Assembly: GCA_015501595.1 (NCBI GenBank)
Contig: JADNRX010000224.1
Coordinates: 1 to 64,000, forward strand
Direction: 5' to 3'
DNA: 64,000 bases
Source: Hymenopellis radicata
Lineage: Eukaryota; Basidiomycota; Agaricomycetes; Agaricales; Physalacriaceae
The notes under the pieces were generated by a model. That model was not told the DNA's origin and did no database searches. It saw only the letters and a list, made by a program, of their open reading frames with translations. Positions 17,126 through 59,047 of this stretch are shown one piece after another. Both the position numbers and the translations under genes were made by a program. Every line of letters starts with the position of its first letter. The first letter of the stretch is position 1.

Positions 17126-17619
17126 GATTGGATGATTCGCGGAAGTCTCCAGAAAAGACGACTGGAAGAACGGATCTCGAGACGAGGAATATCCTTGCGT
17201 TTGGATGAACTACGCCTTTCTTGGTAGGTGGTGGTATGAGTGCAAGAGGAAAGGTCTCATCGTTACTTAAGCACCGATCCGTCACTGACAGCTCGGCATC
17301 GCTATTACCGTTCGTGTGTTGCCTTCGACGCGTTTCTGACGCGTTAAGCGCGCCTCTAGGATAACATAAGAGGCAAGAAGACCTTACAAGATATGTCCGA
17401 GTACGCTAAATCTCCGAAGTTGACTTTTCACTGGGCGTGCCGACTGCCATCGCCAACTTCGGGCAGTCCTTTCCGCGCTCGGAGCTGGCTCGTCAACGTG
17501 GAATGAAGGAGATATAAGATTGCAAGACATAAATAGGTAATAATTTAGATGACTGCAATCAACGACTTTACAAAGCACGCTGCTACTAGTGCCGAGCACA
17601 ACCCATCTTGGTGGCGGGA
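17126..17619. other. Intergenic, duplicated upstream region of F-box A copy B
   Basis: Matches 1301-1740 in block A, including the end of the DAAO 3' flank; no separate gene. Confidence 0.5.
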
Positions 17620-17628
17620 AGACCAAGT
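17620..17628. repeat. Target-site duplication of the MULE-like element, left copy
   Basis: AGACCAAGT, identical to 18226-18234. Confidence 0.85.
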
Positions 17629-18225
17629 GAGGGATGACAAAAACCGTACTATTAGTTATTCGTCGACGACTGCAAAACGACTGAATTCGGTACCGTTTTC
17701 AGTTATTATGCTGTATTTGCAATTTCTTCGACAAAAAACAACTAAAATCAGTACCCCTTGTACAGAATGACTAGAATTGGAACGATAGGTGCGCCCGACC
17801 CGCTATTTCCTTATTTGGTAGGACAAAGGGTCCCCGATGTGGCGCAGTTTGTGGTGACTGATGGATTCCGGTTAGGATTGGGTTAGGTTGGTTAGGCGGG
17901 AGGTTAGGGTAGGTTGGTGACGCTTCGGCGCGCGCTAGCGCGCCCTACACTTAGGCTTCGGGAACCGAAGCCTAAGTTCTCGGGGTTAGGGGTTCGGGTT
18001 CGGGGTTCGGGTGGTGGGAATATATCTTCTCGGGGGTCTGGGGTCTCCCCAGCACTTGGTTCAGGCATTTCCCCTCACTGGGTCAGCCCGGACAGTGCGT
18101 CGGGAGGGGCTGTACCAATTTCAGTTATCGGGATCCCGCCGAAGCCCTGTCTCCCCGATTTCAGTCATTTTACACATTTCAGTCAATGTGCATAATAACT
18201 AATAGTACGTATTGTGTATATACTC
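17629..18225. mobile_element. MULE-like non-autonomous element (MITE, 597 bp)
   Basis: It begins GAGGGATGACAAAA and ends ...ATATACTC. The reverse complement of the right end aligns with the left end and shares the 16-base block CGTACTATTAGTTATT. It is flanked by perfect 9-bp duplications AGACCAAGT at 17620-17628 and 18226-18234. Comparison with DAAO copy A shows the uninterrupted site, so the insertion is directly visible. It has no coding capacity. The interior holds G-rich TTAGGG-like stretches (about 17870-17920) and a 12-bp inverted repeat (CTTAGGCTTCGG with a 3-nt loop, near 17950-17977). A 9-bp TSD with GAG-type ends fits Mutator-like elements; the class is inferred. Confidence 0.85.
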
Positions 18226-19668
18226 AGACCAAGTTCCACTTCCTCGATCAACTCCAAGACATCGCTAGCACACCCAAAGGAGAGCGAAAAGCCGGCGCCC
18301 CCTTGGCCGTAAGAGTGGACAATACGACTCATGGATCCGTCTGGTCTCGAGCGAAGCTCACGTTCAACGCGTACATTGGAGCCGCGGAAGGGACGGAGGC
18401 CTTGCACCAACGGTGCATCTGGGTCGTATTCGGCTCGCTCCAACCCGGGAACAAAGTTGTTGCAGCGCTCGCGCATGCGAACAATTTCGGGGCTGTCCAA
18501 GGTCAAGTCGAGCTCGTATTTGTGGGGTTGCGCCAAGCCTGAGGAGGAGAGAATTAGCATCAGTCCCTAATAATAAGATATATGACTTACCACCAATGAT
18601 GAGCGTATTGTCATTCCGGGGAACAATAAAAACAATGTCCTCATCTTCGCCGCGCGTGTCATCATGTGTTACAGCGAGCGCCTCAGTGACTTTGGGGAAC
18701 ATCTTCCCGTCGTTGACGACTCGGATCAGGGCTCCGCGAAGGGGGTAGACGGATTCATCTCCAGCGAGCTCAAGACCAGCGAGTCCCGTCGCGTTCACGA
18801 TGGCGTCTGTGCCGTACTCGGCGAGGAGTTCTTCCTCTTGGTCGAGAAGATCGCCGTTGATTCGGCGAGTCTCCATCACAGCGCCTTTGCAGACCAGCAC
18901 GAAGCGAAGCCAGTTCATGTACGCGTCCGTATCGATAACTGGTGCGAGATGCTGATACGCGTCGACAACGCCAGCCTTCTGGTTAACTTCGTGTTCAAGG
19001 ACAATACTGGCATCGCGCCGAACACCTTTAAGCTGGAAACATTATTAGTTTCGTTATCAAGTCGAGGGAGGAAAACTCACGTCTTTTTCGGCCATGATTT
19101 CTTCAAACTTGTCGAGTTGCCCGCGGTCAGGCATATTCTCCATCTTCTGATCAAAGAAGAAGTTGGCCATCCGCATCTGAACACCGTGATCGAAGTAGTC
19201 GCTTCGGGCCATCGTCTCTTGAAGCTTGTCGAAGACGCGGTAGGCCGTCATACACCACCGCTTCGAGTTGTGCAAAGAGATAACCTGTAAGTCAAGGTGA
19301 GAATGGTGATCAGATTAATGAAAAGGGTACTTACATCGGTGTGTTTTCCACAGACAGCAGGTGGGAATTCCCAAAGAGCACCAGCGATTTGAGAGGTGAT
19401 GCGGTTCTTGGGATCAGCCCAGCGCTCGGCAATTATGGTAACGTCGTATCCGGCATCGAGTAGTGCCCAGGCGGTCTGGAGGCCATATTAGCACACGGAT
19501 TTCGAAAGTACGTCGAACACCTACAGTGAAACCAGTGACACCGCCACCGACAACCAAGATGCGCTTCTTAGGCACATTGAGGTTGAGTGGAGTAGCTTGT
19601 CCGTGGTTAAAGACAAGCTCGTCGCCGACGCGAGTCAAGAAGAAGTCGGGAGCAGAGGCGATAGACAT
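18183..19668 (-). CDS. D-amino-acid oxidase, copy B (C-terminus replaced by transposon sequence)
   Basis: Five exons from ATG 19668 with the same splice pattern as copy C. It keeps VVGGGVTGFT, ALWEFPPAVCG, NATGLAGLELAG, GLRPFRGS and HSYGQGGAGFSLS in one open frame. After EEVELGL the frame enters the MULE-like element and reads SIYTIRTISYYAH followed by a stop (18183-18185). The last roughly 8-15 native residues are thus replaced by 13 transposon-encoded ones, all FAD- and substrate-site motifs remaining. Expected reaction: oxidative deamination of D-amino acids. It may still be functional because the lost tail is short. Divergent from the intact F-box B at 20771. Confidence 0.88.
18226..18234. 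repeat. Target-site duplication of the MULE-like element, right copy
   Basis: AGACCAAGT, identical to 17620-17628; the sequence continues directly into the DAAO coding strand. Confidence 0.85.
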
Positions 19669-19740
19669 GATGTTTTCGAAATGAAGCTGAGTCTGAGTAT
19701 GGACTGCTGATGATGCTGCATTGTCCTGGACACATCCAGG

Positions 19741-19747
19741 TTATATA
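19741..19747 (-). promoter_or_regulatory. TATA box of DAAO copy B
   Basis: TATATAA on the minus strand 73 nt upstream of the start codon, in flanks shared with copy A. Confidence 0.6.
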
Positions 19748-20770
19748 CCAATACCACGTCCGCGACTTTGAAAGAGCTCGGACAACGCAGAAGTTGTGCT
19801 CATCCGCGGCACCCTGACGTCTCGCTGGTCGTTGTGGACTTGCAGGGTTCTACGCGGAGAAAGCATAGGCCCCGGGTGATGAGGACGATATGAATGACCT
19901 CGGAGTATTTGACGATTATCCTTCATATTCGTACTAGTGAAATTGTTAGTCTGGTGCGACATCCAAGAAATGAGAACACTCACAGATGTATTCATCGACG
20001 CCGACATTGTATATATGGCCAGTAGTCCTGAACTTTAAGAGTAGGTATTTGGGCAGTCGAGTTTTGTTAAGTTGCCGGAGTGCGAGCTGGGTTGAATCTG
20101 AGTGTGCAATCTGGAACCTGACTATTTCCAGATCTTACCGAGGACCAGAGAAGACAGTCACGATGGAGACACGCCCGAGCATATAATCACGTCCGAACGT
20201 CTGAGTCTGCAGAGATGCGATAATGCATGAATATAACAACTAAAAGTCAGGGAATATCAGTACTACGACCACGGAATGAAAGTAAAAGCACCATTTCACC
20301 GCTGCTGGTCCGACTTTGTACGGTCATAGCGATATCATCGGAGAGAAATACTCTGAAGGCACAAGTCTCTCAAGTCCACGGCAATCGTTGAAGATGCACG
20401 CTCCGAATAGGAATCCCGAAAGCATATGATGCAGGTCGGAGGTCAAGTTGAACACGGTGATACCGGTGTTTAAACCCGTCGGCAATCGTGTCCCTTCCAT
20501 GGCGTTAAGCGATGAGTGCATCCCTGCACCTCCTCGCGCTTCTCCACTGCTCAGATCTGCCTCGGAATTATGTTCAAGTTCAAATTCGTCTTCTCTGAAG
20601 TTGGAGAGATTGGGCAGTTCAATTCTGTGGCGCGGCTCCTTGGACGTTACACGATCCATGGATGCTTGCAGCTGTCTTGCAGGAACTGCTACGCCTCTTC
20701 AGGAGCTCTCACGATCTTGAACCGCTTTTAAAGCTTCCTCTTTGCAGCGCATCTCTTCAACTCGCCCTCC
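19748..20770. other. Divergent intergenic region, duplicate of 3312-4318
   Basis: No gene; presumably the shared promoter region of DAAO B and F-box B. Confidence 0.5.
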
Positions 20771-21893
20771 ATGAACAACACTTCCGAACTCCCGCAAGAA
20801 CTCCTCGATGAGATAGTCGACTGGCTCCGCGACGATCCCTCGGCTCTCATAGCGTTGTCCAGTACGGCGCAGTGCCTTCGCCATCGTTCGAAAATGCACC
20901 TGTTTCGAGAACTGGTGTTGTCGCCAACGACAAAGCCCCCGTCCAGCTATCTTCCCCTCCTCCAGACGTCACCCCATATCCTACCATACGTGCGCCGGCT
21001 CCGGATTGTAGCTGGGGAGTTTCCTAGTGCAAGTAACGCTCGGAAGCGGCTGTACGTTCACGGAGACCAATCGCTTGGTCAAGTGTTTCGCTCCCTGATC
21101 AATCTCGATGACCTCGAGTTGATGCAGATGGTTAGATTGGACGCCTTCACGGGGTCTAGTGGCCTTCTTCCCATCATCACATCGCCCAATGTCAAGAGAC
21201 TGACTCTGAACACCATCTTTTTGGAGTCGTCCCATTCATTGTTTCAAGTCCTCTCTTACTTTCCCGCTGTCACGTCTCTTCAGCTGCGCGAGGTCCACGC
21301 GATGAGCGCATCCGCTCCACTGGACTTTCAGACACCTCGTATTACCGAGCTGTCTATTACAGCAGGACTGCTTTCGTCTCCGTTGGGCGTGTCGTTGTTA
21401 GGCAACACAGCCGATGGATGGCTGGCGTGTCTCCGTACTCTCACGATGGAGAGCTACTTTGCTAGCGAACTCCCAGCCATCTCAAGGCTCATCAGTCGGC
21501 TCCCCGAGCTCACCTCCCTGACCTTTCGAAGTCCCGTTGGCGATATAGGGCATAAATCTAGTGAGTTTTACTATAACCTTGTTGTTGGATGCTTACCAAC
21601 TGGACCATGAACCAGCACAAGAACGACTGAAGGCAGAGATGCCTGTCTTTCCGTTCCACCGGCTTCAACGACTTCGGATAGTCTTCCCTAGTCTCAGCTC
21701 ACCGTGGTCGACCTGGTGGATCGACAATCTGAAGCTAGCAGTATCCGTCCCTCATCTGGATCAGTTGATGCTTGAGCTAGCATGTCCCCAGTATACGACG
21801 TGCTCCTGTGAGCACCATACCTTCCGAGAGATCGGTGAAGGGCTGGCTCGGCTCCCAAGCATGATGTCGGTAAAGGTTTCAGTCAGTCAGTGA
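20771..21893 (+). CDS. F-box-like protein, family B, copy B (intact)
   Basis: Starts MNNTSELPQELLDEIVDWL, a clear F-box, with ALIALSSTAQCLRHRSKMHLF completing the domain in the first 50 residues. A leucine-rich body of irregular repeats follows (LTLNTIFLESSHSLFQVL, ITELSITAGLLSSP). One intron (21561-21615) joins GHKS to TQERLKAEMPVF. The C-terminal exon ends KVSVSQ and carries a Cys-rich CPQYTTCSCEH. No frameshift. The protein is about 355 residues. It is likely a substrate receptor of an SCF ligase, inferred from the F-box. The copy in block A differs by a one-base deletion. Confidence 0.82.
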
Positions 21894-27569: not shown

Positions 27570-30500
27570 ATGCCTTACCATGTCATTGTAAGTTTTAGGC
27601 CTCCTTTGGGTGTATGTTCTCATTTCATACGTAGAATGGCGATGATTCAGAGGGCGATGTTGATGAAGACACGCCCAGCCATGCCGACGAAGACTCGGAG
27701 TGAGTATATGTTATCTTTGGAATCCAGCAGTGAATCTAATTACAGTTAATTACAGTGATGGTGAAAGCATGCCCAGACATAAACGCGCGCGAACGAGCGG
27801 TGCCGCGAATGGCACGACGAGCAAACGGCCTCCCTTAAAACCCAGGCTTCCAGAGGCCGGCGCGTTCAACCCGGAGTATGATATTCGAACACACGGCGTT
27901 CCAACGCAAACAAACAAGCGGAAGGATTTAAACATTCAACGGGAATACGGCACAAGATCCTTCTGGCCCGTGGAGGCGGGTCTACGTGAATTATTGCAGA
28001 ACACCTGGGACGGATGCGTCGCGTTCATGCGCTCCAAACGGCGTGACGCGACCGCGGAGGACATTGAAGTGTGCATCCTGGTAGATGGCGAGCCCGTTCC
28101 GCGTAAAGATCCTCTTGCCGAAGAGCCTCTTGGAGACCTCGAAGATGGCGTAGTCGTCACGTTTCTCTTTCGAGTCAAGAAGACCCTTGCCAGGCCTCCC
28201 TGCCTCCCCCGACCTCCAATCACCGCCAGACAACGGGAAGATGCTCTCCAAGAAGGCAAGCGGCCCCGTTCTCGCCGTTCGCGCTTCGAGCGGAGAGGTG
28301 ATTGCGGAGCATGGAGCGACGACCGACTACTCGGCTGGGTCAGTTTTCGATCGGGCAAGGAGCAGTGCGTTGATATTGAGTTGTTCAACGTACATAAGCC
28401 TCTCACATTGGCCACTATGACATTTGGCGCAAGCACCAAAGCCGAGGAAGTTGAAACAATCGGTGAGTGGGGAGATGGAATGAAGATGGCAAGCGATAAT
28501 GAATGCGCAAGATGAACAACGAACTCACGTCAATTTATAGGGGATTAACTGCATCAAAGGTGTCGAAGCCCCACCCGGCGGATGTCCATTATATCACTGG
28601 CAATGTTCAATGGGATTTCGCCTATAACGACGAAAAGTCACTCGAGGTCCGGGAGACTAAAGCCAACATCCCCTTTGTACCTGGTGTTCTCGTTCGGATT
28701 GTTGACTTTCCGTCGCATAAAGTCGATCTCAAGAAATTTTTGTTTCTATCTCCCCCGAAACAGCGTCTGGCGGCGAAGCGTGGAACCATCATCTTGGATA
28801 AGGCTTTGGCGAAAAATGTTTATGTCTGTCCATTGCTATCATTTCAAATGCCTTTGGTCTTACCAGTAACAGGTGAAAGGAATTCATGTTACCACCATGC
28901 CCGACCTGGTGTACGGAGTAGACATTCGAACGAACATGCCGCTATCTCGTGATCGCTCAGGTTTACAGTCCGAATTTGAGACTGCCGACACTATCTTCCA
29001 TATTTGGGCTGAACTTTTTCCTTCCAGTCGCAAGGCTAGAGACTTGTATATCGACCTTCTACTTGCAAAGTCGAAACCTGTCGAGGTCATCGCTGCTTCG
29101 TATGCGATGACCACGCCGCACTTGAAGCGGCTTTGGAAGCAGCTGAGGAACCGGGAAGGTGATGTCTTTTTCTGTTTGGATAATTCCTCACAGAAGCACA
29201 TCACGAAACACATCCTGTGTATGCGACCGTATCCCCTCAACGAACCCTTTTGGGCTCTCCTTAACCGGCGTCAACTTATTCAGTCTCCCGACGCAGCTCG
29301 CGCCGAAAGATTTGGCAACCTCCCTCCATCTCCTGTTCGCAACAGCTTGCTCATGCAGGTTCAGTTCACATTCCACCTCATTGAAGCTTTCAGATGCTTG
29401 GAGAAAAATGCGAGACAGTGTAACTACGAATTCAAGGCTGCACCACCACGTATGGACGTCGAGGTAGTCAACGCAAACGGCGTCATTCTACTCAACGATT
29501 TTATATTATCCCCCGCCTATATCCACCAAAAGCATCCGCAGTGTCCATCTTACCAGCGGTACCAGGAGAGTCTAGCAGACGACGAACAGCATGGGGCTAC
29601 GTCCTTACGGGGACCTCCTACCCACAACAGATTTCCCGATGTTGGATCCGCATTCATTTGTCACTGTGCCGCATTTCATGTCCTTGCCCATCTCGATCGG
29701 GAAATGGCCGTCGCTGGGCAGGAGAATAGACAGGAGGCCCGCCAAACTGCTCTTCAAACATTGCCGAGGGACGTCGTGTTCCAAATCACAAGGAGGCAGG
29801 ATGCCCAGGGATCAGATGTCCCAATGGACATTGGCCTCTCATGGCGAACTTGGAGCTCTGTATCGAAATTCTTGGTTACAGTATCATCCGACGTTACTGG
29901 AACAAGTCGACTGGTCCATGACGTGGAGAACGGCGTAACTCAAGCTGCTACTGCCGCTCTGCCACCCACCGAAGGAGAGACGATAAGTAAGTTCATATAC
30001 ATGTTTCCTTGAGTGTTGGGAAATTGACTGCCGCCCAGCACTGATATTCTCGCGAACCTTTGAATGCAAAAACAATACTCTTTGCCTCACCGATTTGGTT
30101 CCTCGGGGACAGAAATACGCTGCGCAAGTATGTTCGAACAAAAAAGGATCCCTCTATAGCTTGCCGCTCTATTTTACTGTCCCAGCCTCTCCTCCGCGTT
30201 CAGCCTCGATTGCCGTCGTGCAGCATCTGCCTGATCAGCTGCTCGTTACATGGACAGCCAACCCAGATGCTGATGGCGCCGATAGCTGGATTGTCGTCGT
30301 TCGCCATGGTGAAAGGGAGCTCCTTCGCAAGGAGGTTTCCACGCCGACGCTGGACACAAGGGTTGAGGACCTGCCGACCGACATCTCGAGTGCTAACGTT
30401 TCCGTGCATGTGTATGCAAAGTCGGCTAAACTCGACGGCCTCACGAGTACGGACTGCGCTTCATGGCCATGTCAAAAAACGAATCCGTCGCCTGCCTTGC

Positions 30501-32463
30501 CTGAGGCTGATGAGGAGATGGCGTATGCTGATAATGAGCGCACTGTTGGCGATGGTGCCCACGACATTGGCAATGCTGGACAGAACGAAGACAGGGAGCA
30601 GACCCCGGAGAACATCGCCGAACTCGTTATTCCAACATATGATGAGCTTGTGGCAAAGCCAAGCCTTTCGGTATGTCCAGGGTTTAACCGGACGACCGCA
30701 ACTGACTTTTGATAACTAGTCGAGCGATGAGAAAACCTACATCAACGTCAACGTCCGGTGGATTACTGTTGACGGCAATAAGAAGAAGCTTACTACTAGG
30801 AAGTACTTCATCGTCAGTCTCCAAGGAGCCGATGGTCGCCGGTTTGAGGGTACCATGCTCTACATTCACTCCATCGGCGTCCCTGATGATCCTGGTCCAG
30901 ACGACGAGGACGTCGTCGTTGTTTCCCAGTATATTCCCCGGGATCGTATTCAGTCGGACGCGCCACCCAACGAATTCCTGCGGATATGTCATCCACAGCA
31001 CGGCCCGGCAGAAAGCTCACATTTCCGTCTTTCGGATATCCTGGACGTGCATTCGGAAGCGATACCCGTCTCGGACCTTGACGTCGTCGCCGAGGTTGGC
31101 GGGGACAGGTTCTGCAAGTGGAACATTGTCTTTCGTGATGGTGAAGAGCCACAGTTCACCCCGTCCTCGCTTGCGGTGCTACTCCTCCTGCCCTGCCAAC
31201 GCTGGAGTTTGGCGAACTCTTGTCTGGGACAGGTAATGCCTCGCTGGGATTCCGGCAGGCGGGCTTTAATAATCGCTTTGCTGTTGAATGTGATGTGTCC
31301 CTTGCCTCTGCTTTCAGTGTCAGTCAACTACTACCAGTGTGCTCTGGATATTCACCTTACCAGCTTCTTCGTAGATGAATTCTCGGACGCCCGTTTTCAA
31401 GGAATCGACAGAACACTTCTTCTCGCGATCGTGGGCAGCTAAGCCGATGCTGCAATACCCATTCGCGGCTTTACTGGTCAACTGCGATACGAGGAATGGG
31501 CGAACGATTCCCAAGGACATTCTCATCAAGTGTATTGAAGAGTTTAGACCTGCATATGCTGTGAGTTCTTCCTTCCCTAGATGAACGGAACACTAACCTT
31601 CAGGTCGTGTTAGGTCTGCACTGTGTCACCCGTGAGTGATCGCCTGGGCCTTCAAATAGCTTGTTGATCTTTCCTTTCACAGGACATGAATCGTGGAAAA
31701 CTGTATGATATGACATACAAAGCCATGACGCTGGGTTACTGCCTCAAGTGGCAGGTCCTCGATTCCGCGGATTTCGGTGTTGCCGCACACAAGAAGTATC
31801 TCGTCGTATTCGCCAGTGCGCCTGGACGAGAGATGCCTGATTTTCCTCGGCCAAAGACGAGTCGCGCGCGTACACTCGAAGACGCCATCTCGGATCTGGA
31901 ATGGGACAATGCGACGTGCCGGCCCTCGGGCAAGGGCTTTGCGACGGAGTTTCCCCACCTTGCCGTCGACCAGCGTCAAGCGCTCTCCTGGCACTGTACG
32001 GGCTGCTACTTGCCTGATGTCACATCTTGGGACCCCGATGTCACCGTTGCGAAATGGGATGAACCGTTGCCTGGTAAGCTCTCTATTTTCCGATTCAGTC
32101 TTGCTGTTTACACGGCGGCGTAGACACGTTTCTTCTGCCTTCGGAGACCGTCAAATGTCGCCACCCGCGTAGGTACTTTCAAGTAGATGTTGATATTGCT
32201 TTTCTGACACGTGGATCCCGTAGACCACCCGGAGCGTTTCCTTTCTGTTCGTGAAATGGCACGGATTTTGGGAGTATCGGTAGGCTGCTCATTTTGCTGC
32301 GAAAGGAGTTGAGCTGAAGCACTTTAAGGATGAATGGGAGTTCACCGGCTCCCTTCGGGAACAGTATAGCCAACTGGCCAGTGCCATGCCGGCTTTGCTC
32401 TCTCAGGCCATTGCAGAGGAACTGGGCAAGGTTCTTGTCATGGCTAATCCTCGTCTTGCTTGA
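27570..32463 (+). CDS. GHKL ATPase / FN3-like / BAH-like / C5-DNA-methyltransferase-like fusion, copy 1
   Basis: Very large multi-exon gene. Order of parts: acidic N-terminus (GDVDEDTPSHADEDSD, spliced before MPRHKRAR); a GHKL ATPase with N-box EAGLRELLQNTWDGC (27974-28018) and glycine box GEWGDGMKM (28464-28490); a long middle region with VPGVLVRIVDFP and ALQTLPRDVVF; a fibronectin-III-like segment (LLVTWTANPDADGADSWIVV, 30240-30300); a BAH-like segment (SQYIPRDRI and FRLSDIL); then a C5-methyltransferase-like domain with motif I (FGELLSGTGNASLGF), LVNCDTR where motif IV stands, VLDSADFGVAAHKKYLV (motif VIII), DHPERFLSVREMARIL (IX) and SLREQYSQLASAMPALLSQA (X). Two frame breaks (near 28560 and 31160) and a GC donor after GDGMKM suggest decay or base errors. 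Start chosen by exon linkage, uncertain. Confidence 0.7.
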
Positions 32464-33555: not shown

Positions 33556-35106
33556 ATGGTGCGCGTCCGGTCGTCTCGATTCATTCCGCTTTTTTATAAC
33601 GAGAAAAGACTCAGCCTGGCATTCCTCTCGAAATCAAAACTCTCATTATCCGAGAGTTATCACCATACGCCTCCAGATCCAACCCTCGCTCTACCCCTGT
33701 GTCCGGAGACGAAAACGCTGCATACATTCGTGACCTCTGCGCAGTCTGCTTGGCCTGGCCAGATACAATTGCCATCATCCGCAAAATCCTCTTCGAAGAC
33801 ATTTCCATTCGTCCAAACAATCACCATATAGACGCGTCGCTGCGCAACCTTTGCCAGGCCCTAGAAAATGATCCCGGTCTTTCCACGTTCGTCAAGACAC
33901 TTGAATTCTCTCATCGAAACACCAACAGCTCGTCGCGCAAAAAATCTCCCTTCATTCCCACTGCCAGCCGTTCGCTCTTCCTCTCGTTCTTATCCTTCAT
34001 TCCCAACATGCGCAAACTCAGATTTCTTACCCTCGACAACATGTGTTTCCACGATGAGACTTCCATAGAGTTCAACGACTTACGCGTCCTGAAGGAATCC
34101 TCGGTGACGTTCCTCACCCTCAGGAACAGCACCTTCTCCATTCCAGCATTTAACGTGTTCCTCGGTTACTGGGAGGGTAGGGAGCTTGACCTCTCCGTTG
34201 ACGGTATATCCCTCATTCCGCATACCACCTACACGTCGGATCAGATGTTGCTTGAAATCGACGAAGATACAGGGGACTGGGATGAGGAGAATATTCGGAC
34301 GGAATGGGAGATCGACAAGCCCCGCGCGGCGTCCTTCTTATCTGTTACATATCTCGAGCTGAAACTCTCCAACTCCGGAATGCTGATGCTCATGGACTTT
34401 TTAGCGAGTGATGAGTGGTCGCCGTTGAAATCTGTACATGGTTTGGAGATATTCTCGGAAGATGCGATAACCGCCACAACTGTGATCCGGATCAACAATC
34501 TCATCCGACGATACGAACCGGTCTCTTATCTGGGTTTGAATTTCTTCTCCAATGAGTGTATGTGGCGTGCTTTATTTATGATTTCTCCTATCGCCTGACA
34601 TACTTTCTTCGCCAGTTGAAGATGCAATTGGTACACCGCTCTATCTTGCCGGGATCGAACATGGGGGCGTCCGTCTAAGGCTTCATAACTGCTTCACTCT
34701 TTTCGAACTGGACAAAGATCTCTTCGAGTGGTACATTGAAAGCTTTGCTGCCGTTCCGCCCAATTCGAGCCTCCGAGAGTTCTGCTTGGAACTTGCTGTA
34801 CTTGTTCCCCTCGAAGCCAGGGACTTGGGATCACAAGGTGTTTGGAGGAGACTGGATTCAGCCTTGTCTGGCGACAACTTACAGCTCGAGACCCTCATCA
34901 TTGATGTGTATCTCAAGCCTTCCCCGAATGGCGCCAGGACGCCCGGACTGCCGCAGTTACAGACGTGGTTGATGGAGATTTGTTTTCCGGAGGTTACCGC
35001 AAAATATTTCAGATGCAATAAGGAGTCGGAGGAAACGGAAGGAAGGGAGATGAGCGCGCTGAGGTTCTGGATTGGAGATGAGCAGGTCGACCCAAGGAAA
35101 CACTGA
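33556..35106 (+). CDS. F-box-like protein, family A, copy D (intact)
   Basis: A single-codon first exon (ATG 33556-33558) and a 56-nt intron, then 33615-34557 and 34616-35106: 478 residues with every junction in frame. It begins PGIPLEIKTLIIRELSPYAS, followed by the helix DLCAVCLAWPDTIAIIRKIL and a leucine-rich, irregularly repeated body (LRFLTLDNMCFHDETSIEF, VTFLTLRNSTF). It ends WIGDEQVDPRKH. One of two undamaged family-A copies. Its upstream region carries the hAT-like MITE about 130 nt before the ATG, which may separate it from its original promoter. A DAAO remnant follows it, the reverse of the DAAO-first order in the other blocks. Confidence 0.85.
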
Positions 35107-36210: not shown

Positions 36211-37770
36211 CTAAATCCATGACTGGTGATGGTATACAAATGTCATAGTTCGATAGATCTGGCGTAGCGTTACACAGCGAAGCAACATATTAAATAACGC
36301 AAAAAGCAGCACGACGTACACCATCATATCATTAGGCATCAGCCCCGGCTTATTCGCCATCATCCAAGTATCAAGCGCCTTCCAAAAGCTCGCGACAACG
36401 GCCTTGTCCACATGCCTCCTATTCTGGTCAATCTTCAACTCCGACACGTTCCAATCCTTAATCTTGGCGTTTGGAGGATCACTCGCCCATGAAAAGTATA
36501 TCCCTTTGACTACGGAAAGATGAGTCAATGTACAAGAAAGTGAAAGGCGATAGAGCGTACCATGGTGAAAGAGAATTCGAGGCTCTGACCAGCGGTATGG
36601 CTTGAACTGCCAGGCTTGGCCGTGGTCATCACGCAAACTACGCGCTCCCAGGCATCCGGTCCGAACCTGTTGAGGGACTCGTGCGAGTCGACGACGATAT
36701 ATCTTGCCTGCGTTGAGCGTTCCTTCCCACCAGGATCGATGTGAGTGAGCTTCCGGTCGACAGTGACGAGCTTTTCAGTGTTGCCCTTCTCTCGTGCCTC
36801 TTGGGACGTCTCGAAACTGTTGGATATTGAGAACGAATGAGTAATTAATAGATGAGAACACTTACACGGCCTCCTGCAGAAAGCGTTTGACGTTGTGCAT
36901 TGTGATGAGGGCGGTAGGGGACGACGAGACCATGATGATAGGGAAATTGCTGCGGGCCTTGCGGGCTTGCATCTTGTGGTCTGGCGTAGAAGCCGTAGCA
37001 GCAGTTGGCGGCGCGCCTGCCTTGTTCGCCTCCCGCATCTTTTTCAACTTTTCGGTGTAGACGTTCTTGATATTGGTAAAGTTCTGTACAAGAATCAGTA
37101 GATGACGAGGAGGCGACCAATATACGCATACATTGGGCTTGGTGCCTTGGAGGACTGCGTTGCGGTCGCGCAATTCAATCTCGCTGCGCTTGATTTTCTT
37201 GACCACTTCCATGTCGTGCGGGTCTGGCACATAGCGTCGCTTGCTTGACGGCGTATCTGGAACCGATTTCTTGGGCGACGTCGTCACTGGCAGGCTGCTC
37301 GTCGTGCGCGTCGGTGTCCAGGTGGTGTCGAGGATTCGCCTAACAGCAATGTTAACCAATGTCGAGACCGTTTAACAGCACTCACCTGGTAGTGACACTA
37401 TCAAGTCGCCGTCGTCGATGTCGCCTTCAAGCCACTCCAAAACGCGTTTTCTGGCAGTGACACTGACCAGTAGACCGACGCCGACGCCGTTCTCACGCGC
37501 CTGTCGCGTGTACTCGGCCGCAGAGGCGTCCTTGAGATGCCAGGCGAGGTACAGAGCCTCAAGTGAGTAGAAATCATTGGGGCCCGTCGGCGTCGTTACG
37601 TCCAGCTTGCGGAATCGCGTTGCCGTCGACTTTGGGAACGAGTGAGGTGGGATGACGACGTGGGTCGCCGTCGACAGCGACGAGCACGGCTGGTCGTTGA
37701 TAGCATAGGTAATTATCTGCTTCCCTTTAATGGCCTGGCGCAGGGTCAAGGCAGCGTCTGGCGAGCTCAT
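36211..37770 (-). CDS. cdc73: Cdc73 / parafibromin, PAF1 complex subunit (one frameshift)
   Basis: Nuclear component of the PAF1 transcription-elongation complex. Five exons start at ATG 37770 with TLRQAIKGKQIITYAI, then FYSLEALYLAWHLKD and SVTARKRVLEWLEGD. The middle part has PDPHDMEVVKKIKRSEIELR and KNVYTEKLKKMRE. The conserved C-terminal Ras-like domain shows FPIIMVSSSPTALITMHNV, YIVVDSHESLNRFGPDAW, QAWQFKPYRW and IKDWNVSELKID. Near 36620 the frame moves between VVCVMTT and QAWQFKPY because a GGG run is one base short. Since this gene is normally single-copy and important, a sequencing slip is more likely than a real mutation. The last 40 residues are unusually hydrophobic (VYVVLLFALFNMLL) and may be a misread intron. 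Confidence 0.9.
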
Positions 37771-40768: not shown

Positions 40769-42317
40769 ATGGTACGCGTGTGGTCGTCTCGATTCATTCC
40801 GCTTTTTTAACGAGAAAATACTCAGCCTGACATCCCACTTGAAATCAAAACTCTCATCATCCATGAATTGTCTCCATACGGCTCCCTATTTCCTCATGTC
40901 GAGGACGAAAAAGCGGCATACTTTCGTGACCTTTGCGCAGTCTGCTTGGTCTGGCCGGACACGATTGCTATCATTCGCAAAATCGTCTTCAGGACGATAT
41001 CTCTTCGTTCCAATGATCACCATATAGACGCGTCGCTGCGCAACCTTTGCCAGGCCCTAGAAAATGATCCCGGTCTTTCCACGTTCGTCAAGACACTTGA
41101 ATTCTCTCATCGAAATACCAAACAGCTCGTCGCGCAAAAAATCTCCCTTCATTCCCACTGCCAGCCGTTCGCTCTTCCTCTCGTTCTTATCCTTCATTCC
41201 CAAAATGCACAAACTCAGATTTCTTCGCCTCGACCACATGTGTTTCCACGATGAGACTTCCATAGAGTTCAACGACTTATGCGTCCTGAAGGAATCCTCG
41301 GTGACGTTCCTCACCCTCAGGAACAGCACCTTCTCCATTCCAGCATTTAACGCGTTCCTCGGTTACTGGCGGGGAGGGAGCTTGACCTCTCCGTTGATGG
41401 TATATCCCTCATTCCGCATACCACCTACACATCGGATCAGATGTTGCTTGAAATCGAGGAAGATACATGGGACTGGGACGAGGAGAATATCTGGACGGAA
41501 TGGGAGGTCGACAAGCCCCGCGCGACGTCCTTCTTATCTGTTACAGTTCTCGAGCTGAAACTCTCCAACTCCGGAATGCTGATGCTCATGGACTTTTTAG
41601 CGAGTGATGAGTGGTCGCCGTTGGAATCTGTACATGATTTGGAGATATTCTCGGAAGATGCGATAACCGCCACAACTGTGATCCGGATCAACAATCTCAT
41701 CCGACGATACGAACCAGTCTCTTATCTGGATTTGAATTTCTTCTCTCATCAGTGTATGTGGCGTGCTTTATTTATGATTTCCCCTATCGCCTGACATGCC
41801 TTCTTCACCAGTTGAAGATGCAATTGGTACACCACTCTACCTCGGCGGCGTCGAAAGGACGGTGATGGGTTTCAAGATTCATACAGACTTTACCCTATTC
41901 AAACTTGACGAAGATTGCTTCGACTGGCATGTTGAAAGCTTGGCCGCCGTTCCGCCCAATTCGAAACTCCGAGAGCTCACATTGGACCTTTCTCAACTTG
42001 TTCTCCTGGAAGCCGGGGACTTCAACTTCAAGGGATCACAAGGTGTTTGGGGAAAACTGGATGCAGCCTTATCTGGCGACAACTTACAGTTTGAGGCCCT
42101 CGTCATCGATGTGTATCTCGAGCCTTCTCCGAACGCCAGGACGCCCGGACTGGCGCGGTTACGGACGTGGTTGATGGAGATTTGTTTTCCGAAGGTTACC
42201 GCGAAATACTTCAGCTGCAATAGTAAGCCTGAGCCTGAGGAGGAAACGGAAGGAAGGGAGACGAGCGCACTGAGGCTCTGGATTGGAGATGAGCTGGTCG
42301 ACCCAAAGAAACACTGA
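40769..42317 (+). CDS. F-box-like protein, family A, copy E (two frameshifts)
   Basis: A lone ATG (40769-40771), a 54-nt intron, then PDIPLEIKTLIIHELSPYGS and DLCAVCLVWPDTIAIIRKIV. Compared with copy D the frame is first shifted near 41122 (one extra A in CCAAACAG) and then restored near 41370. The second half reads ATSFLSVTVLELKLSNSGML, an intron, and ends WIGDELVDPKKH. Its C-terminal exon carries extra residues (KPEPEEETEGRE). Whether the two shifts are biological or base errors cannot be decided here. A P450 fragment on the opposite strand follows. Confidence 0.75.
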
Positions 42318-46184: not shown

Positions 46185-48021
46185 ATGGGCGACGAGGTAT
46201 GTCCTTCTAGTTCCGTGGCCTTGAACTGACGCGATTCTAGATGGGGAAGGACATAGAGACGGCCTACAGAAAAGACTTTGGATTCATTCCGGTACCCAAA
46301 CGGTTACAGTATAATGTAGAAAAACCCTTTCATTTTGGGTTACCTCTCAACATTGCTTTCGGGGCTGCAAGCACGTTTAGTAGGCTGTTCAAATTGCTAT
46401 GCATTCAACCCGTTTGCTGATTGTGTCCTAGCGGTTATGAACCTATATTGGTGTCAACCTCTGCTTAGTACGTCTTTTTCTGGATGCTGCGACGCCTACT
46501 TATGCGTCGAACAGTTGAACTATCGAAGGATTTCAATATCAGTTATGAAGAAGTATCCAGGTTGGCTATCTTATTACAACTGTTCTACAAATCTCATATC
46601 CTTTTACTAGAGTACCAACTCTTCTACAAGGCGGGTACGTGCTACATCTTCCTCGAATTCTACAAACTAATTATTTTTCAGCTATGCAACTGGACTACTT
46701 TTCTTAACACCTCTCGGAGACCTCGTCCGTCGTCGCCAACTAATCCTCATCCTCATCTTCGTCGCCGCATCCCTCACCATCGGCCTCTCCGTCACCACCA
46801 GTTTCGCCGCATTCTCCGCACTTTCGTACCTGGTCGGTGTAGTCACCGTCACACCCCAAGTCCTCATCCCACTCGCCGCAGACCTCGCCCCACCCGCGCG
46901 CCGCGCCTCCGCCATGTCCATCGTTCTCGCCGGTCTCCTTTTGGGCATCCTCCTCGCCCGGGTCCTCTCCGGTGTCATAGGCGAATTCGTCTCCTGGCGC
47001 GCGGTCTACTACCTCGCCATCGGAGTGCAGTATTTCGTGATGGTCGCGTGCTATTGGGTCGTTCCCGATTATCCGGCCAAGAACAAACATCTAACGTACT
47101 TTGACATTCTGAGGTCGATGGCCACGCGGTGACGGAGCCGCTCCTGATCCAGGCGTGTCTCATCAGTATAGGATCGATGGCGTCCTTCACAAACTTTTGG
47201 GTCACGCTGACGTTCTTGCTCGGAGACGATCCGTACAATTATTCCACGTCTGTCGAATCTTTCGCCTTCTCTATTTCAAGTTGATGCTCACGCATCTCCC
47301 GTAGCTTGGTTATCGGTCTCTTTGGTTTGATAGGCATCGCTGCTGTCGCGATGGGTCCCGTACTAGGCATGGCCATCGACGGCTTGGTCCCATGGTACGC
47401 GACATTGTTCAGCATTTTCATGCTAGCATGCTCTCATGCCGTGTACACCGGTGCTGCTGGCCTGTCAGTCGCTGCAGTCATCATAACCACAGTCGGGATC
47501 GACACATTCAGACAAATGCTTGAAGTGTCAATGGCGACTCGCATCTTTGGGTGAGTTTGGCCGTAAACGATCCAATGAGCTTCGTTTGATAACTCGTTTA
47601 GCATTGCACCAGAAGCGCGCGCGCGCTTGAACGCCGTGTACATCCTATCAGTATGTTGATCCTCGGCCGTCTGTCCATGACTTACATGTTGCAATAGCTC
47701 TTCATCGGTCAAGTCATGGGCACGTCTGTTGGAACTCAAGTCTTCGTGGCGCATGGCTGGCGAGCCTCCGGCGCTCTTTCAATGGCATTCTGTGCCTGGA
47801 TGTTCTTCATTCTCCTCTTGCGGGGACCGCATTGCGACAACAAGACATGGTTTGGATACCAAGGCGGTATAGAGCCGAGAAAGTCGGTAGTTGACAGCGC
47901 TAGAGAGCATCCGATGACGATAGACGAGAAGAAGGATGATGTAGAAACGGAAAGTAGAGAAAAGGAAGAACTCCCGGAAGTGGGGAGTACCCTCAACGAA
48001 AAAGAACGTACCAATGTATAG
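46185..48021 (+). CDS. MFS transporter (one frameshift)
   Basis: Membrane transporter of the major facilitator family with unknown substrate. Six or more short introns can be placed: after MGDE, after AASTF, after CQPLL, after YEEVSR (continuing VPTLLQGGYATGLLFLTPL), after LLQGG, after NYST, and two near 47550-47700. The family signature GDLVRRR follows the third segment, the loop typical between TM2 and TM3, and VSWRAVYYLAIGVQYFVMV marks later helices. The frame stops at about 47128 (SMATR) where one base is missing; adding it gives AVTEPLLIQACLISIGSMAS and continues well. The tail (RKSVVDSAREHP) is hydrophilic and cytosolic. Confidence 0.82.
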
Positions 48022-48283: not shown

Positions 48284-51200
48284 TCAAATTAAATTAACAG
48301 ACTGGAGGGCGAAAAGATTTTGTTTTCGTTGGGATTTCGTAGTATTAGGATTTGCGACAGACACAACTTTGCGAATTTCTTCCGCAATCGCTCGAGCAAA
48401 CCGAGGCGGGATCGAGCTCGCCAATTGGCCATACTGTTTCTCCAGTGAACCCGAGAAGGTGCATTTATCCTAAGACGAGTATCAGTTCAACTCTCCAAGA
48501 ATAATTAGAAAAACATTCGTCGTACGGGGAACGATAAGATCCGCGCCATTTCTCGAACAGTCAGGAAACGCTCCGGGTGGTCTGTCAAAACCGACGCGTT
48601 AGTATGGTACAAGTCAAGGGGTATCAGAGCACGCACGCGGGTGCCTACACTTCACATTTTGAGAAGGTAGAGCAAATACATCTACACCGTTTTAATCATC
48701 GAAACAAACTTGAGAAGTAAGAACCTTACCAGGTAGCGGTTCGTCCCAGTCAGCGATAGTCGTGGCCGGATCCCAAATCGAAAAGTCGGGTACACAACAG
48801 CTTGTACAATGCCACGTAACCCCGTGCGGTTGGTTCACAGTGTGGCTGAACGAGGTGGAAAGACCGCGGTCTGAAGCACGGCACTTTGCATTATCCCACG
48901 TCAAGTCCTCAATGACATCCTTGAGCGTCAGACGTGTCTTCTCCTGGGGCACGGGGAAAGAGGGCATTTCTCGACCAGGCGCGCTGGCAATTACAAGCAA
49001 GTATCGCCGGTGAACGGCTACGCCAAAGTCCGCTGCATCGAGCAGCTGCGACTTGAAGCGGTATCCGAGATCCATGGCTTCGTGTTCGATGTTATCAAGC
49101 TGCTCGGGACCCACGTCCTGATGAAGAAACAATTAGAACAGGAGAAGCAGAACAGATAAAGTGACTTACTGGCGACAGAGCACATACCTAAGAGTCGGGG
49201 TTATCAGCCCGTTCAAGTGTACATCCCAGATAAATTGGACTCACCGCATATGCAGGTTTGAGCGCCCGTATTGACTGTACAAATGCGCCAGTTGAAGCAT
49301 CCCTCATATCGCAGTTGACGAACACTGCGGTGAACTGGTATTCCGACAATTCACCTCGTCCTAAGAAACTGTCCACCGGTTCGTTGTATACTTCAACCGT
49401 TGAACAATTCCTCTAGAGAAGGCATCAGACGAACTTCTGGCGAATGCGTTGCGTCTGAACAACTCACCTCAAAAAGCATTGATGAAATCTCTTCCGGCTC
49501 AACGCCAAAGCGAGGATTGAAGCCAGCTTCGTGGAAGCCGAGGGACGCGCCTCCAATTCCACATGATATGTCCACGAAGTCTAAACTCGTCAAAGCGGCA
49601 AAATCACCAGTTGGCGGAATGACTGGAATGAATTGGGGTCGAACACCGCCGAATACAATCTTCCACTTGCAAAAGTGTGTGTCAACTCCGGCAAGCACGT
49701 CGACATGGGGATAGACATCACATCGGAATCTCGGACGAGCACGATGTCGGACAAGAGGTACCTCGCCTTATCGACTGGTTCTCCACCAGGCTGGGGGTGG
49801 CAGACAAGCAGGAACTCGTCAGGGGATGCCTCTGAGTGAATGGAGCGCCGCGGAATGTACTGACGGACAGTGACGACCTCAGAGACACCTCCATCAGGAC
49901 TGGGTTCATCTGGCACACCGATGGAGTCGAGCCGGATATAAACGGAGCGAGTTCGGCCATAGCTCTTTATGAGCGTGATGAGGTAGGTGTTGCCGACGAC
50001 AAGGTTCTTCCTCTTAACACAGCGCGCTTTGACGGGAACGTACACCCGGTCGTCGACCAACTATCCGGAATGTCAGCCTCAAGTTGAATAAATGCGAGAA
50101 TAATTGACTTACGGGAAGAGAAGGTTTGACCACGTACTGGTCATAGATAGGGATAGCCTGAATCTCATCCTCCACCTCTTGCTCCTCGACATCCATCTGC
50201 TCGTCGTCATCGTCGTCCAGCATCGTGGTTGTTCGCGGCGGCCATCAACGCAAGACTGTGCTCGTTGTCCACGTACTCGAGCTCTTCTGAGTCGCGGAAC
50301 GCCGGTTGGGAAACGTGAGAAGTCGACCTGTCTGGTGATTCAGAATGGTGGAAGCTCGCCTGAAGAGGCGTGGGAGGCGAGAACGGCGGGGAAATCGTCC
50401 TATGAGACGACCACGACGCGTAGTTCTTGCTCACTATCCCATCACCAATCGTCGACTTGGCATGGATCTCCACAAGGATGTCGGCATCTGACAGAGTTGT
50501 AGGGGAGGTCTTCAATCCTCTCCTCCAGCGTCGGCGTATTCACTTCGCGTCGCGTCACTTCTTGCATGTTGAGCCGAATGACGACGATCCAGGCATCGGC
50601 GCCATCAGCTGGACTGGACGCCCACGTTGCGCGCAGTTGGTTCGCGAAGAGTGCTCGACGACGACTGATGCGGAGCGCGGAGGCGACGGTGGAACACAGA
50701 ACTGATACGGCATGCTGAAAGAGAGATTCCTTCTCGTTCCAGCAAATTTGCGCCACGTATTTCTGGCCTGGCCGAAGCTTGTCATTAAGGCAGAGCATTG
50801 GCCATCGCACTCGAACGTTCGCAAAGACGGCGGGTCTTGAGAATAGTCAGCATGCGTACTGTGAAAAAAGAAACAATATCGCTGTTCGGCGTACCTATCG
50901 CTTGAGGGAGGCCCTGAACCTGCGTCTCGTTGATCAAAAGACGTGTCCGTGGCCCAGCGTCATCGTAGATTTTGACCAAGAAACTCAGGTTGTCGATCCA
51001 AGTCTTCCATGACAGAGTCATCTCCACCGGCGCGTCTGAGCTTTCAACATTTGACTGCGCCGTTTGAAAGCGCAAGTCCCGTGGGAGCGTCTGGAGCGCT
51101 ACATACCGCCTCCTTTCCACCTCTATTCTCCACTGTTGTGTTACCGAGAGTTCTCCTGGGTGATCAGCGAAAGGATGTGAAGAGCGGAACAATGACAGAT

Positions 51201-53440
51201 GTGTTCCGCGTCGACGTCGGGAAATCGATGATCGTCAAAGAGTTTAGAGATGTCGCCAGACTGGGGCTCCGTCTCGCCGCGAGCGTGCAGGTGCCGCCTG
51301 TAGTATGGGCACATACCGCACTTGAGGTGGACAAACTCGGACGACAAAGTGCAGTCGTTAATAAGGAGCACCTCGCCATCCACCTTATCCACCTTATCCA
51401 CCTCGATACTATCCAACGTATGCGGGACAGCTTGGAACCGATACGCGTCGCGGTATCGAGCCATCTCGCTCTCGGAAGCTAGAAAACTCGCGAGGAGATG
51501 AAGTGTGTACCGGACCTGCAGCGTCGGCTGCGCGATAATCGGCGAGGCGGCGAGATTGAGGAATTTTGCGCTTCGGGCTGCCTGCGGGGATTGTATAAGC
51601 CGGTGCCTCCGGAGATGAGAGTGAAACCTGTCGTGGATGGGGAAAGGAGTTTTACGCAACACATCCTGGGTGATGCGTATATCCTCGGGATTCTCAGAGC
51701 AGAAGAATACGTCGCCGCCGCCCTTTGTCGCCTGCAGACGTGTCCAAAGGAGCTTGACATCATCAACATCCATCGGGGACCATCCCTCGCCCTCCGCGTG
51801 TTTGACGTCGACAGAGGACTTTTTGCCAAGCAGAAGCTCGAGGTACAAGTCCATAGATTCCGCATTGGAGCGGAAATTAGCCGCCCAGATGTTATAGACG
51901 TAGGGCGAGAGATCTGATGAAATGTCGCCGTACATACTATTGCGGTCGCGCGTGAGGGACGCATCCTGTAAGTTGACACCATACGCGAGGTCATTATCGA
52001 CTGAGACGTAGAAATTTTTGATCTGCAAATGCCATTAGCAACGAAGTGAGAAATTGACAGATAGCCTAACATAAATGCGGGACGACAAGTGCGTGTCCCT
52101 AAGGATAGAACCGCGTGCAGTGGTTAAACATTTTTGCGGTGGACGGATGAAGAGAAAATGTCCAAGGTCAACGATGTCGCGAGGGAAGTCGACGATCCGA
52201 GTGAGGACTCCGGGGACGAAAGGAGTATTGGCGACGGTTTCGATAACTTCCAGCGATAAATCCTGGACCTCGTTGTATTCGAATTCCCATTGCTTTGTTC
52301 CTGTGAAGCAGGAGAGATTGGGGACCAAGCCCCCGTTGGCGGTGCCCTCCCGAATTATAGCATTGATTCCCTGTGATGATGAAACTCAGCTCAACATGGA
52401 CAGCAGTATAGATAAGGAAATCTACTCACCATCTTTAATCCATCTCCATGTTGTCCAACAAGGACCCTCGACTTCGCTTTCGTGGTCGCCCCGAACCGCA
52501 TCTTGGACAACGTGAGCGGTTCATGGATATCGAAGAGCTCAATCTCGAACGTATTCCGAGCCGCTGCGCGCAAGCCCAACCAACCCAGGAGGCGACTATC
52601 ACTCCAAATTCCACAATCACCTTTGCGCCCCAACTGTCCTGCTGGCACTGGGCCCCCAGGTTGGGGAAGTGGAGGAGGGTCAAGGTGTCCTTTTACGCGG
52701 AAGACCACCGTAATCGTTTCGCCCAATTCGAGGTGCTGAGACCAGGACGGATCCAAAATGCCCCAGTCGAAAGCGTGGGAAGGTCCCTCCTTGTCCTTGT
52801 GAACGACGGACACCGCGATGTCATCGGGAGATCCATGACAGAATTGCATGCAGCCATCCCACATGTTCTGGACCAGCTCGCGTAAACCCGCCTCCCGAGG
52901 CCAGTAGTCGCCGTAGTTCTGGAGGAGGTTGAGATCCTTGACCACCCTGTCGCGCCCTGCGCGACGCGACGACACCACGTAGTGGGGATTGAACGGGCCA
53001 GCCTCTGGTAGACTGCGTTTGGGACCGGTCGGTTTCTTCGGCTCTGGCACGCCGCCTGCTAGAGTGCGTCTGCGTCTAAAAGGTGGAGGACGCGTAGATT
53101 CGGATTCCGACGAGTCGGTAGTAGTGGAATGCTCGTCATCCGACGGGTACTGAACACAGTCAGAATACAACAGACAGTAGTTGAATGTATTCTTTGCCCA
53201 CCAGCGCGTGCTTGGGCATCCAGGTCCTGCTAATACTACGCGATCGAGATTGTCGTGGACGGAAGCAACTCGTGCCGGCAACCGCCGAGACGATTTCTCT
53301 TCCACCATCATGATCAGAGAACGCCGCTCCTGCTGGCGATCGTCTCGGAGGTAACCTCCGAGGTACCTCGGAGGCTCCGCAAATACAACCTGCAGGTGTG
53401 CTGGCAGACGGACGTATTCCGGGTGTCCGCCCGCAGACAT
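48284..53440 (-). CDS. GHKL ATPase / FN3-like / BAH-like / C5-DNA-methyltransferase-like fusion, copy 2
   Basis: Same order as copy 1 and better preserved. N-box EAGLRELVQNMWDGC and ATP-lid glycines GQHGDGLKM, spliced to GINAIIREG, define a GHKL-type ATPase (about 52400-52910). The middle region has VLTRIVDFPRD and ALQTLPRDLRF. The fibronectin-III-like part contains ADAWIVVIRL; the BAH-like part VRQYIPRRSI and YLLSDIV. The methyltransferase-like domain shows motif I (FVDISCGIGGASLGF, 49530-49590), FVNCDMRDA in place of the PCQ motif (about 49300), AYAVCALSP where ENV is expected, LDAADFGVAVHRRYLLV (VIII), FLTVREMARILSFP (IX) and GSLEKQYGQLASSIPPRF (X), ending QSVNLI. The FN3 stretch reads in two frames. 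First exon and start are uncertain. Expected nuclear; function unknown. Confidence 0.78.
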
Positions 53441-53564: not shown

Positions 53565-53825
53565 ACCTACAGGAGCCTCCAATATACCTATAGGATGCCT
53601 TTGCTGTGTACCTACAGGAGCACTCGAACATACCTGTAGGATGCATTTGCTGTGTACCTACAGGAGTGGTTCAATGCACCTATAGGATACTACTCTTGAG
53701 TACCTACAGGAGCACTCGAACATACCTGTAGGATGCCTTTGCTGTGTACCTACAGGAGCCCTCGAACATACCTGTAGGATGCCTTTGACGTGTACCTACA
53801 GGAGCACTTGAACATACCTGTAGCA
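53565..53825. repeat. 46-bp minisatellite, left array (about 6 units)
   Basis: Units start ACCTACAGGAGC and contain CCTGTAGG, the inverse of CCTACAGG, so each unit can fold on itself. Variants: 'CACTCGAACATA', 'CCTCCAATATA' and 'TGGTTCAATGCA' types. Confidence 0.85.
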
Positions 53826-58390: not shown

Positions 58391-58790
58391 AGACGGGGCC
58401 GGTCGTAGTGTTTTGTCTTAATCACACCGTATCCTGTAATTAACACTTTGTTCGAGGCTATTTTTGATGCGATAGTCCTAAGCGATACCGGTGTTAGCTT
58501 TGAATTTGACTAGGGACACATGAGTTGCTTAGAGTAAAGAGCTGGGATATCATTATCTTGTAGTATGGTAGAGTCATCTTGAGTTGACGGCTGTAGGCCC
58601 TTGTGCTTTGAGTTGACTTGGAGTAATCTCAAGGGTCTCAAGGCAACTCAAGCTTATGACTATCACAGTCTTAGCCTTGAGACAGCTAAAGCTATCTTAA
58701 GATACCTCAGTGCCCTCTGGTTGATCACTGCCACAGCAAGTAACTCAGGCAACCTCTGGCCCACATGCTGTTTCCTGATGAGGATGCTGT

Positions 58791-59043
58791 ACCTACAGGA
58801 GTGGTTCAATGCACCTATAGGATACTACTCTTGAGTACCTACAGGAGCCCTCGAACATACCTGTAGGATGCCTTTGCTGTGTACCTACAGGAGCACTTGA
58901 ACATACCTGTAGGATGCTGTACCTACAGGAGTGGTTCAATGCACCTATAGGATACTACTCTTGAGTACCTACAGGAGCGCTCGAACATACCTGTAGGATG
59001 CCTTTACCAAGTACCTACAGGAGCACTCAAACATTCCTGTAGG
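58791..59043. repeat. 46-bp minisatellite, right array (about 6 units)
   Basis: The same unit types as the left array, including the TGGTTCAATGCA variant twice. Confidence 0.85.
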
Positions 59044-59047
59044 AAGA

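What the first reader, a model, noticed from the sequence alone, without database searches (positions are those of the whole stretch)
48284..53440. Single protein joining a GHKL ATPase to a C5-DNA-methyltransferase-like domain, present twice
Both copies (27570-32463 and 48284-53440) have the same order: GHKL ATPase N-box and glycine box, a long middle region, an FN3-like part, a BAH-like part and a C5-methyltransferase core with motifs I, VIII, IX and X. I know GHKL ATPases (MORC, MutL) and C5-methyltransferases as separate chromatin proteins, and I do not recognise this fusion as a named family. It could be an ATP-driven chromatin or DNA-modification reader, or a defence factor against the many repeats around it. 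The function is inference.
Basis: partly seen in the sequence, partly recalled or inferred. Interest (0 to 1): 0.85.

Follow-up and report, generated by a model that had tools for sequence, protein, structure and literature searches.

The report
ATPase fused to dead DNA methyltransferase
A mushroom gene family joins an ATPase module of the Hsp90/MORC type to a DNA-methylating-enzyme domain that looks catalytically dead in nearly all members found but intact in one distant relative, which points to an apparently undescribed kind of chromatin protein.

Summary
The fusion is real. The window is, by exact protein matches, a Hymenopellis radicata contig. Both copies encode, in one run of exons, a GHKL-S5-like module, a helical stretch, an FN3-like part and a DNMT1-type C5-methyltransferase domain. 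GHKL is below sequence significance (only PDB hits: MORC2, E 0.64), but two AlphaFold models have GHKL ATPases at the top of PDB searches. BAH found no support.

Key correction: the methyltransferase looks dead. Of 11 members read, 10 lack Cys at the catalytic column of motif IV and only one shows ENV in motif VI. Yet in 11 of 13 pairs this domain is more conserved than GHKL, so it seems maintained. Botryobasidium keeps TSCQ, ENV and QHRKR: the ancestor was probably active. Against a simple reading: 7 of the 10 have a Cys three columns upstream. The presumed adenine-contact Asp of GHKL is Asn in 9 of 10.

Copy A needs 2 and copy B 6 frame breaks; a neighbouring CDC73 gene also has one, so decay and assembly error cannot be told apart.

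No listing or passage that I saw describes this fusion. Function (DNA clamp or reader) is inferred.

The parts
48284..53219 (-). Copy B, whole gene; 6 frame breaks relative to P0003, near 51148, 50717, 50643, 50501, 50218 and 49708 (8 relative to P0008)
   Evidence: public model P0010 ends at the first break
52850..52888 (-). Copy B GHKL N-box, GLRELVQNMWDGC
52514..52543 (-). Copy B G1 position, IELFDIHEPL (Asp kept)
52430..52459 (-). Copy B G2 box, VGQHGDGLKM
51936..51956 (-). Copy B RDR motif of the S5-like part
49519..49578 (-). Copy B methyltransferase motif I
49299..49325 (-). Copy B altered motif IV, VFVNCDMRD
49170..49187 (-). Copy B 18-base microexon at motif VI, VCALSP
   Evidence: seen by eye, coordinates; same residues region present in the Mucidula protein
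48992..49030 (-). Copy B altered motif VIII
48535..48567 (-). Copy B motif IX
48389..48433 (-). Copy B altered motif X
27570..32463 (+). Copy A, whole gene; 2 frame breaks relative to P0003, near 28577 and 31159, which the public model P0001 avoids by other splice choices; GC-AG intron at 28489-28540
27979..28017 (+). Copy A GHKL N-box, GLRELLQNTWDGC
28375..28404 (+). Copy A G1 position, IELFNVHKPL (Asn in place of Asp)
28459..28488 (+). Copy A G2 box, IGEWGDGMKM
28945..28962 (+). Copy A RDR motif of the S5-like part
29752..30220 (+). Copy A stretch holding the FN3-like part (P0001 residues 658-775 lie under the fn3 match of P0012), with an intron inside
31208..31267 (+). Copy A methyltransferase motif I
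31471..31497 (+). Copy A altered motif IV, LLVNCDTRN
31614..31631 (+). Copy A 18-base microexon at motif VI, VCTVSP; absent from public model P0001
   Evidence: seen by eye, coordinates; Mucidula protein has VCAHSP here
31770..31808 (+). Copy A altered motif VIII
32238..32270 (+). Copy A motif IX
32365..32409 (+). Copy A altered motif X

Best explanation
These are two members of an Agaricomycetes family in which an N-terminal GHKL-S5 module (the nucleotide-driven clamp seen in Hsp90, topoisomerase VI-B and MORC) is joined through an FN3-like part to a DNMT1-type C5-methyltransferase domain. The ancestor was probably an active methyltransferase whose hold on DNA was gated by the GHKL clamp, comparable in principle to DNMT5, where an SNF2 ATPase is joined to a methyltransferase. 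In the Physalacriaceae and Russulales members found, both window copies included, the methyltransferase became a pseudo-enzyme that is still maintained, most likely to hold DNA and perhaps S-adenosylmethionine (motif I is kept). The protein would act as a DNA or chromatin silencing clamp, or as a partner of an active DNMT, not as an enzyme. Supported by the calls: the fusion, the GHKL and methyltransferase fold classes, the changed catalytic motifs, the shared history of the halves, and the conservation of the methyltransferase half. Inferred: gating, clamp action, DNA and SAM binding, and silencing. The window copies themselves may be decayed.
Against: No sequence-significant GHKL match; models are of middling confidence (pLDDT 66.6 and 69.0, pTM 0.62 and 0.56), with low Foldseek TM-scores (about 0.2-0.5) and only one match at E 0.001 or less. 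Presumed adenine-contact Asp is Asn in 9 of 10, so ATP use is doubtful. Seven of the 10 changed members have a Cys three columns upstream of the catalytic column, so a shifted nucleophile is not excluded; Armillaria and Artomyces keep R-x-R of motif VIII and Artomyces the Glu of motif VI. An active ancestor rests on one intact member. Pairs are not independent, and four include Botryobasidium. Frame breaks in both window copies. No expression, binding or genetic evidence.
Confidence: 0.4

Rival explanations
1. Both window copies are decaying leftovers of the family with no present function; intact members elsewhere do the work.
For: 2 frame breaks in A and 6 in B against P0003, 8 in B against P0008; the public model of B ends at 639 residues.
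Against: A neighbouring CDC73 gene needs a break in its conserved core too, so assembly errors may explain some; A is otherwise open through long exons.
Confidence: 0.35
2. The methyltransferase is still active in the changed members, using the Cys three columns upstream of the usual place or another chemistry.
For: That Cys is present in A, B, Mucidula, both Armillaria, P0012 and Artomyces, 7 of 10 changed members; motif I kept in the alignment; domain well conserved.
Against: P0003, P0004 and P0005 lack that Cys; ENV lost in all changed members with data, and the Glu in all of these but Artomyces.
Confidence: 0.08
3. The protein is an ordinary DNMT1 paralogue whose N-terminus resembles GHKL by chance.
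For: No GHKL or HATPase Pfam family in 9 of 9 fragments; best PDB profile hit E 0.64, none with the smaller profile.
Against: Models from two different genera both rank GHKL chains first among all PDB chains; motif set conserved in 10 of 10; the only PDB profile hits are three MORC2 chains at the G2 box.
Confidence: 0.05
4. The fusion is an artefact of gene models that ran two neighbouring genes together.
For: No transcript evidence was available.
Against: The same order in eight models from seven species; in the window, long exons bridge the S5-like to FN3-like part and the pre-methyltransferase to motif I part.
Confidence: 0.03

Closest known systems
DNMT5 (Rad8-type SNF2-methyltransferase; passages of PMC5073141, PMC7862722, PMC9998398)
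   Same: One protein couples an ATPase to a C5-methyltransferase domain, in fungi among others
   Different: SNF2 helicase-type ATPase there, GHKL-S5 here, with the ATPase half first; most members here lack the catalytic residues. DNMT5's motif substitutions keep it switchable, as the PMC9998398 passage says
DNMT1 / Masc2
   Same: Nearest solved structures of the methyltransferase half
   Different: No BAH or DNMT1-RFD Pfam match in the 13 proteins scanned; GHKL-S5 half at the N-terminus; catalytic motifs changed in 10 of 11
MORC and prokaryotic MORC/paraMORC ATPases (passages of PMC2292703)
   Same: GHKL plus S5 order; G2 box resembles MORC2; prokaryotic MORC genes often lie near cytosine methylase genes
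   Different: No significant sequence match; the paper says MORC is missing from fungi; no fused methyltransferase named in the passages seen; Asn at G1
Hsp90 and topoisomerase VI-B ATPase domains
   Same: Best fold matches of the N-terminal models
   Different: 10-17% identity in the shown matches; different partner domains
DNMT3L (recalled, from no call)
   Same: A dead methyltransferase domain kept for regulation
   Different: DNMT3 class, no GHKL module

Membership tests
GHKL ATPase superfamily | Bergerat ATP-binding fold | tested here: met
   AlphaFold models plus Foldseek and VIA-align: top rows GHKL; middling model confidence
GHKL ATPase superfamily | N-box with Glu and Asn | tested here: met
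   RELxQNxxD in 10 of 10
GHKL ATPase superfamily | G1 motif DxGxG with adenine-contact Asp | tested here: not met
   Asn in 9 of 10, Asp in copy B only; no DxGxG in any of the 10. Placement by sequence only
GHKL ATPase superfamily | G2 glycine box | tested here: met
   G-x-x-G-(D/E)-G-x-K in 10 of 10
GHKL ATPase superfamily | ATP binding and hydrolysis | not testable with these tools
   needs biochemistry
MORC family | Significant similarity to MORC and its GhXhhpXXRhl S5 motif | tested here: inconclusive
   Only MORC2 hits, E 0.64; the S5 motif was not scanned
C5-methyltransferase domain | PF00145 match | tested here: met
   above cut-off in 9 of 10 members with such a stretch
Active C5-methyltransferase | Catalytic Cys of motif IV | tested here: not met
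   absent at its column in 10 of 11, window copies included; present in Botryobasidium
Active C5-methyltransferase | ENV of motif VI | tested here: not met
   only Botryobasidium; Glu also in Artomyces; P0003's model does not cover it; A and B read from the microexon
DNMT1 | RFD and BAH domains | tested here: inconclusive
   no Pfam match in 13 proteins; BAH also by profile, none
DNMT5 | SNF2 ATPase after the methyltransferase | tested here: not met
   no SNF2 or helicase Pfam match in 13 proteins

The most novel reading that the evidence does not exclude
A separate class of eukaryotic DNA methyltransferase in which a GHKL clamp, not an SNF2 motor, gates a DNMT1-type domain. It began as an active enzyme, as still in Botryobasidium, and in the Physalacriaceae and Russulales members found was turned into a conserved double pseudo-enzyme that clamps or reads DNA, taking a MORC-like silencing role in fungi, which are reported to lack MORC.
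Probability: 0.3. Interest if true: 0.85.

Novelty: new variant of a known kind. Interest (0 to 1): 0.7.

Why it matters
DNMT5 is the ATPase-coupled DNA methyltransferase that the passages describe; a GHKL-coupled type would be a second, independent solution. A family that runs from an intact to a lost active site while the domain stays conserved makes it testable whether a dead methyltransferase is kept for reading DNA. It also bears on what stands in for MORC in fungi, which PMC2292703 (passages) reports to lack it.

Tried and rejected
BAH domain: looked for and not supported (controls 91, 92, the plant template holding only two sequences). Prokaryotic relatives of the GHKL part: the scan of genome contigs matched 43 stretches, none confirmed by tblastn; only two peptide patterns were used. 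NCBIfam gave TIGR00675 below its cut-off and chance matches. The idea that frame breaks prove pseudogenes was weakened by CDC73; whether that CDC73 copy is single or intact in other reads was not tested. Copy number across the genome was not obtained (genome search did not complete). In the VIA tables no MORC row is shown; a MORC3 row stands at rank 30 of Foldseek; neither counts against MORC. Family size is a lower bound: each of the three protein searches scored about 8000 candidates, and one search did not return P0004 or P0005, which were in its own query.

Literature: 10 searches; one search found 0 papers; in the listings seen, no title or abstract start names a GHKL-methyltransferase fusion. 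I saw passages, not whole texts, of PMC5073141 (0 occurrences of 'ATPase'; 'GHKL' not asked), PMC7862722 (0 of 'GHKL' and 'HATPase'), PMC13297926 (0 of 'GHKL', 'HATPase', 'MORC'), PMC2292703, PMC9998398, PMC12730594 and PMC10538959.

Recalled, from no call: numbers and roles of methyltransferase motifs I-X, names and roles of GHKL boxes, the effect of Asp-to-Asn in Hsp90, DNMT3L, and the early branching of Cantharellales.
Full report
Where it is.

Gene structure. Copy A runs 27570-32463 (+), copy B about 53219-48284 (-). Open frames, tblastx, an exon-chain script and a spliced alignment with P0003 agree on the order. Against P0003 each copy shows 10 introns, 8 at the same residue (286, 388, 1007, 1211, 1273, 1379, 1394, 1412), so they descend from an intron-bearing gene, not a retrocopy. 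The intron at 1273 is long in both because it hides an 18-base microexon, seen by eye (coordinates) and supported by the Mucidula protein; public models P0001 and P0003 lack it. The intron of A at 28489 is GC-AG.

Frame breaks. Against P0003, A needs 2 and B 6; against P0008, B needs 8. Public model P0001 avoids those of A by other splice choices, but Mucidula P0002 carries the residues skipped at the second. As a control I read the neighbouring CDC73 gene (about 37770-36316, minus): two frames joined by an X match solved Cdc73 at E 1.9e-23 across the join, so that gene has a break too. Decay and assembly error cannot be separated here.

Family. The three searches returned 15 proteins. Two are the window's own (P0001, P0010). 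Three were left out: plant DNMT1-like P0006 and P0007, and P0011, a DNMT without the GHKL half. Orders looked up: Agaricales, Russulales and Cantharellales (Mucidula and Hericium not looked up).

Methyltransferase half. PF00145 passes its cut-off in 9 of the 10 members with such a stretch; P0005 is below. A six-sequence profile finds DNMT1 first in the PDB, E 1.4e-34. Motif I is kept. At motif IV (B) only Botryobasidium has Cys at the catalytic column (TSCQ). The other ten read PPSG, APSS (Armillaria), VPSN, APLE (Dentipellis), APYV (Hericium), PSRE (Artomyces), DADS (P0003), DTRN (A, Mucidula) and DMRD (B). Seven of these ten have a Cys three columns earlier (A, B, Mucidula, both Armillaria, P0012, Artomyces), which may be a shifted residue. 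At motif VI, ENV is in Botryobasidium only; Artomyces keeps the Glu; eight have other residues (A and B from the microexon) and P0003's model does not cover it. R-x-R of motif VIII is kept in Botryobasidium, both Armillaria and Artomyces.

The domain is maintained. Over 13 pairs of eight full proteins the methyltransferase is more alike than GHKL in 11, equal in 1 (P0004/Artomyces, 45%) and less in 1 (Hrad_A/Hrad_C, 55 against 61%). Examples: Armillaria pair 74 and 72%; Armillaria/P0003 42 and 40%; Dentipellis pair 67 and 63%. Pairs are not independent, four include the intact Botryobasidium, and active methyltransferase domains may differ in baseline; still, a freely drifting dead domain should fall behind. 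The S5-like part is higher still in several pairs.

Other parts. FN3 is above its cut-off in P0012 and weak in P0004. BAH is not supported.

History. Trees of the methyltransferase (12 rows, Hericium left out) and of the N-terminal half (10 rows) share the Russulales and Physalacriaceae groups at high support, with Botryobasidium outside. Roots are midpoints, the deepest methyltransferase fork is open, and the ENA row and Tetrapyrgos are long branches. One fusion with an active ancestor, later losing the active site, is the simplest reading; it rests on one intact member, and one or several losses cannot be told.

What it does. Best reading: a GHKL clamp tied to a DNA-engaging domain, once gating methylation, now clamping or reading DNA. 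DNMT5 is the working parallel: in passages of PMC7862722 and PMC9998398 its SNF2 ATPase drives or releases methylation. MORC is the other: PMC2292703 (passages) reports MORC in most crown lineages except fungi, and prokaryotic MORC genes beside cytosine methylase genes. Silencing is inference, and the window copies may not work.

Novelty. In 10 searches no listing named this fusion, and passages of fungal DNMT papers did not mention GHKL where asked. Subscription papers are not held. I file it as a new variant: a known domain pairing principle (ATPase plus methyltransferase) with a different ATPase and a mostly dead methyltransferase.

Noticed in passing
window 28489-28540: Copy A has a GC-AG intron where copy B has GT-AG, right after the G2 box.
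   Followed up: yes
window 36316-37770 (-): A CDC73 (Paf1 complex) gene that needs a frame break inside its most conserved core; it warns of indel errors in this assembly or of a decayed copy.
   Followed up: partly
window 53565-53823 and 58781-59044: Tandem arrays of a related 46-base unit, the first just upstream of copy B's start.
   Followed up: no
window 641-5301 and 16477-21751, also 8121-9015 inverted: Large duplicated blocks about 16.4 kb apart, with an FAD-dependent oxidoreductase (DAO) frame in one; most repeats here are duplicated genes rather than simple repeats.
   Followed up: partly
window 33600-35048 and 40904-42250, also 9942-11296: Three related copies of a gene family with no Pfam match in the two frames scanned.
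   Followed up: no
window 46671-47129 (+): Part of an MFS transporter gene next to copy B.
   Followed up: no
P0015 (Tetrapyrgos nigripes): Carries the GHKL-S5-like half but no methyltransferase match in its 1108-residue model: a model cut short, or a version without the fusion.
   Followed up: no
   Followed up: no
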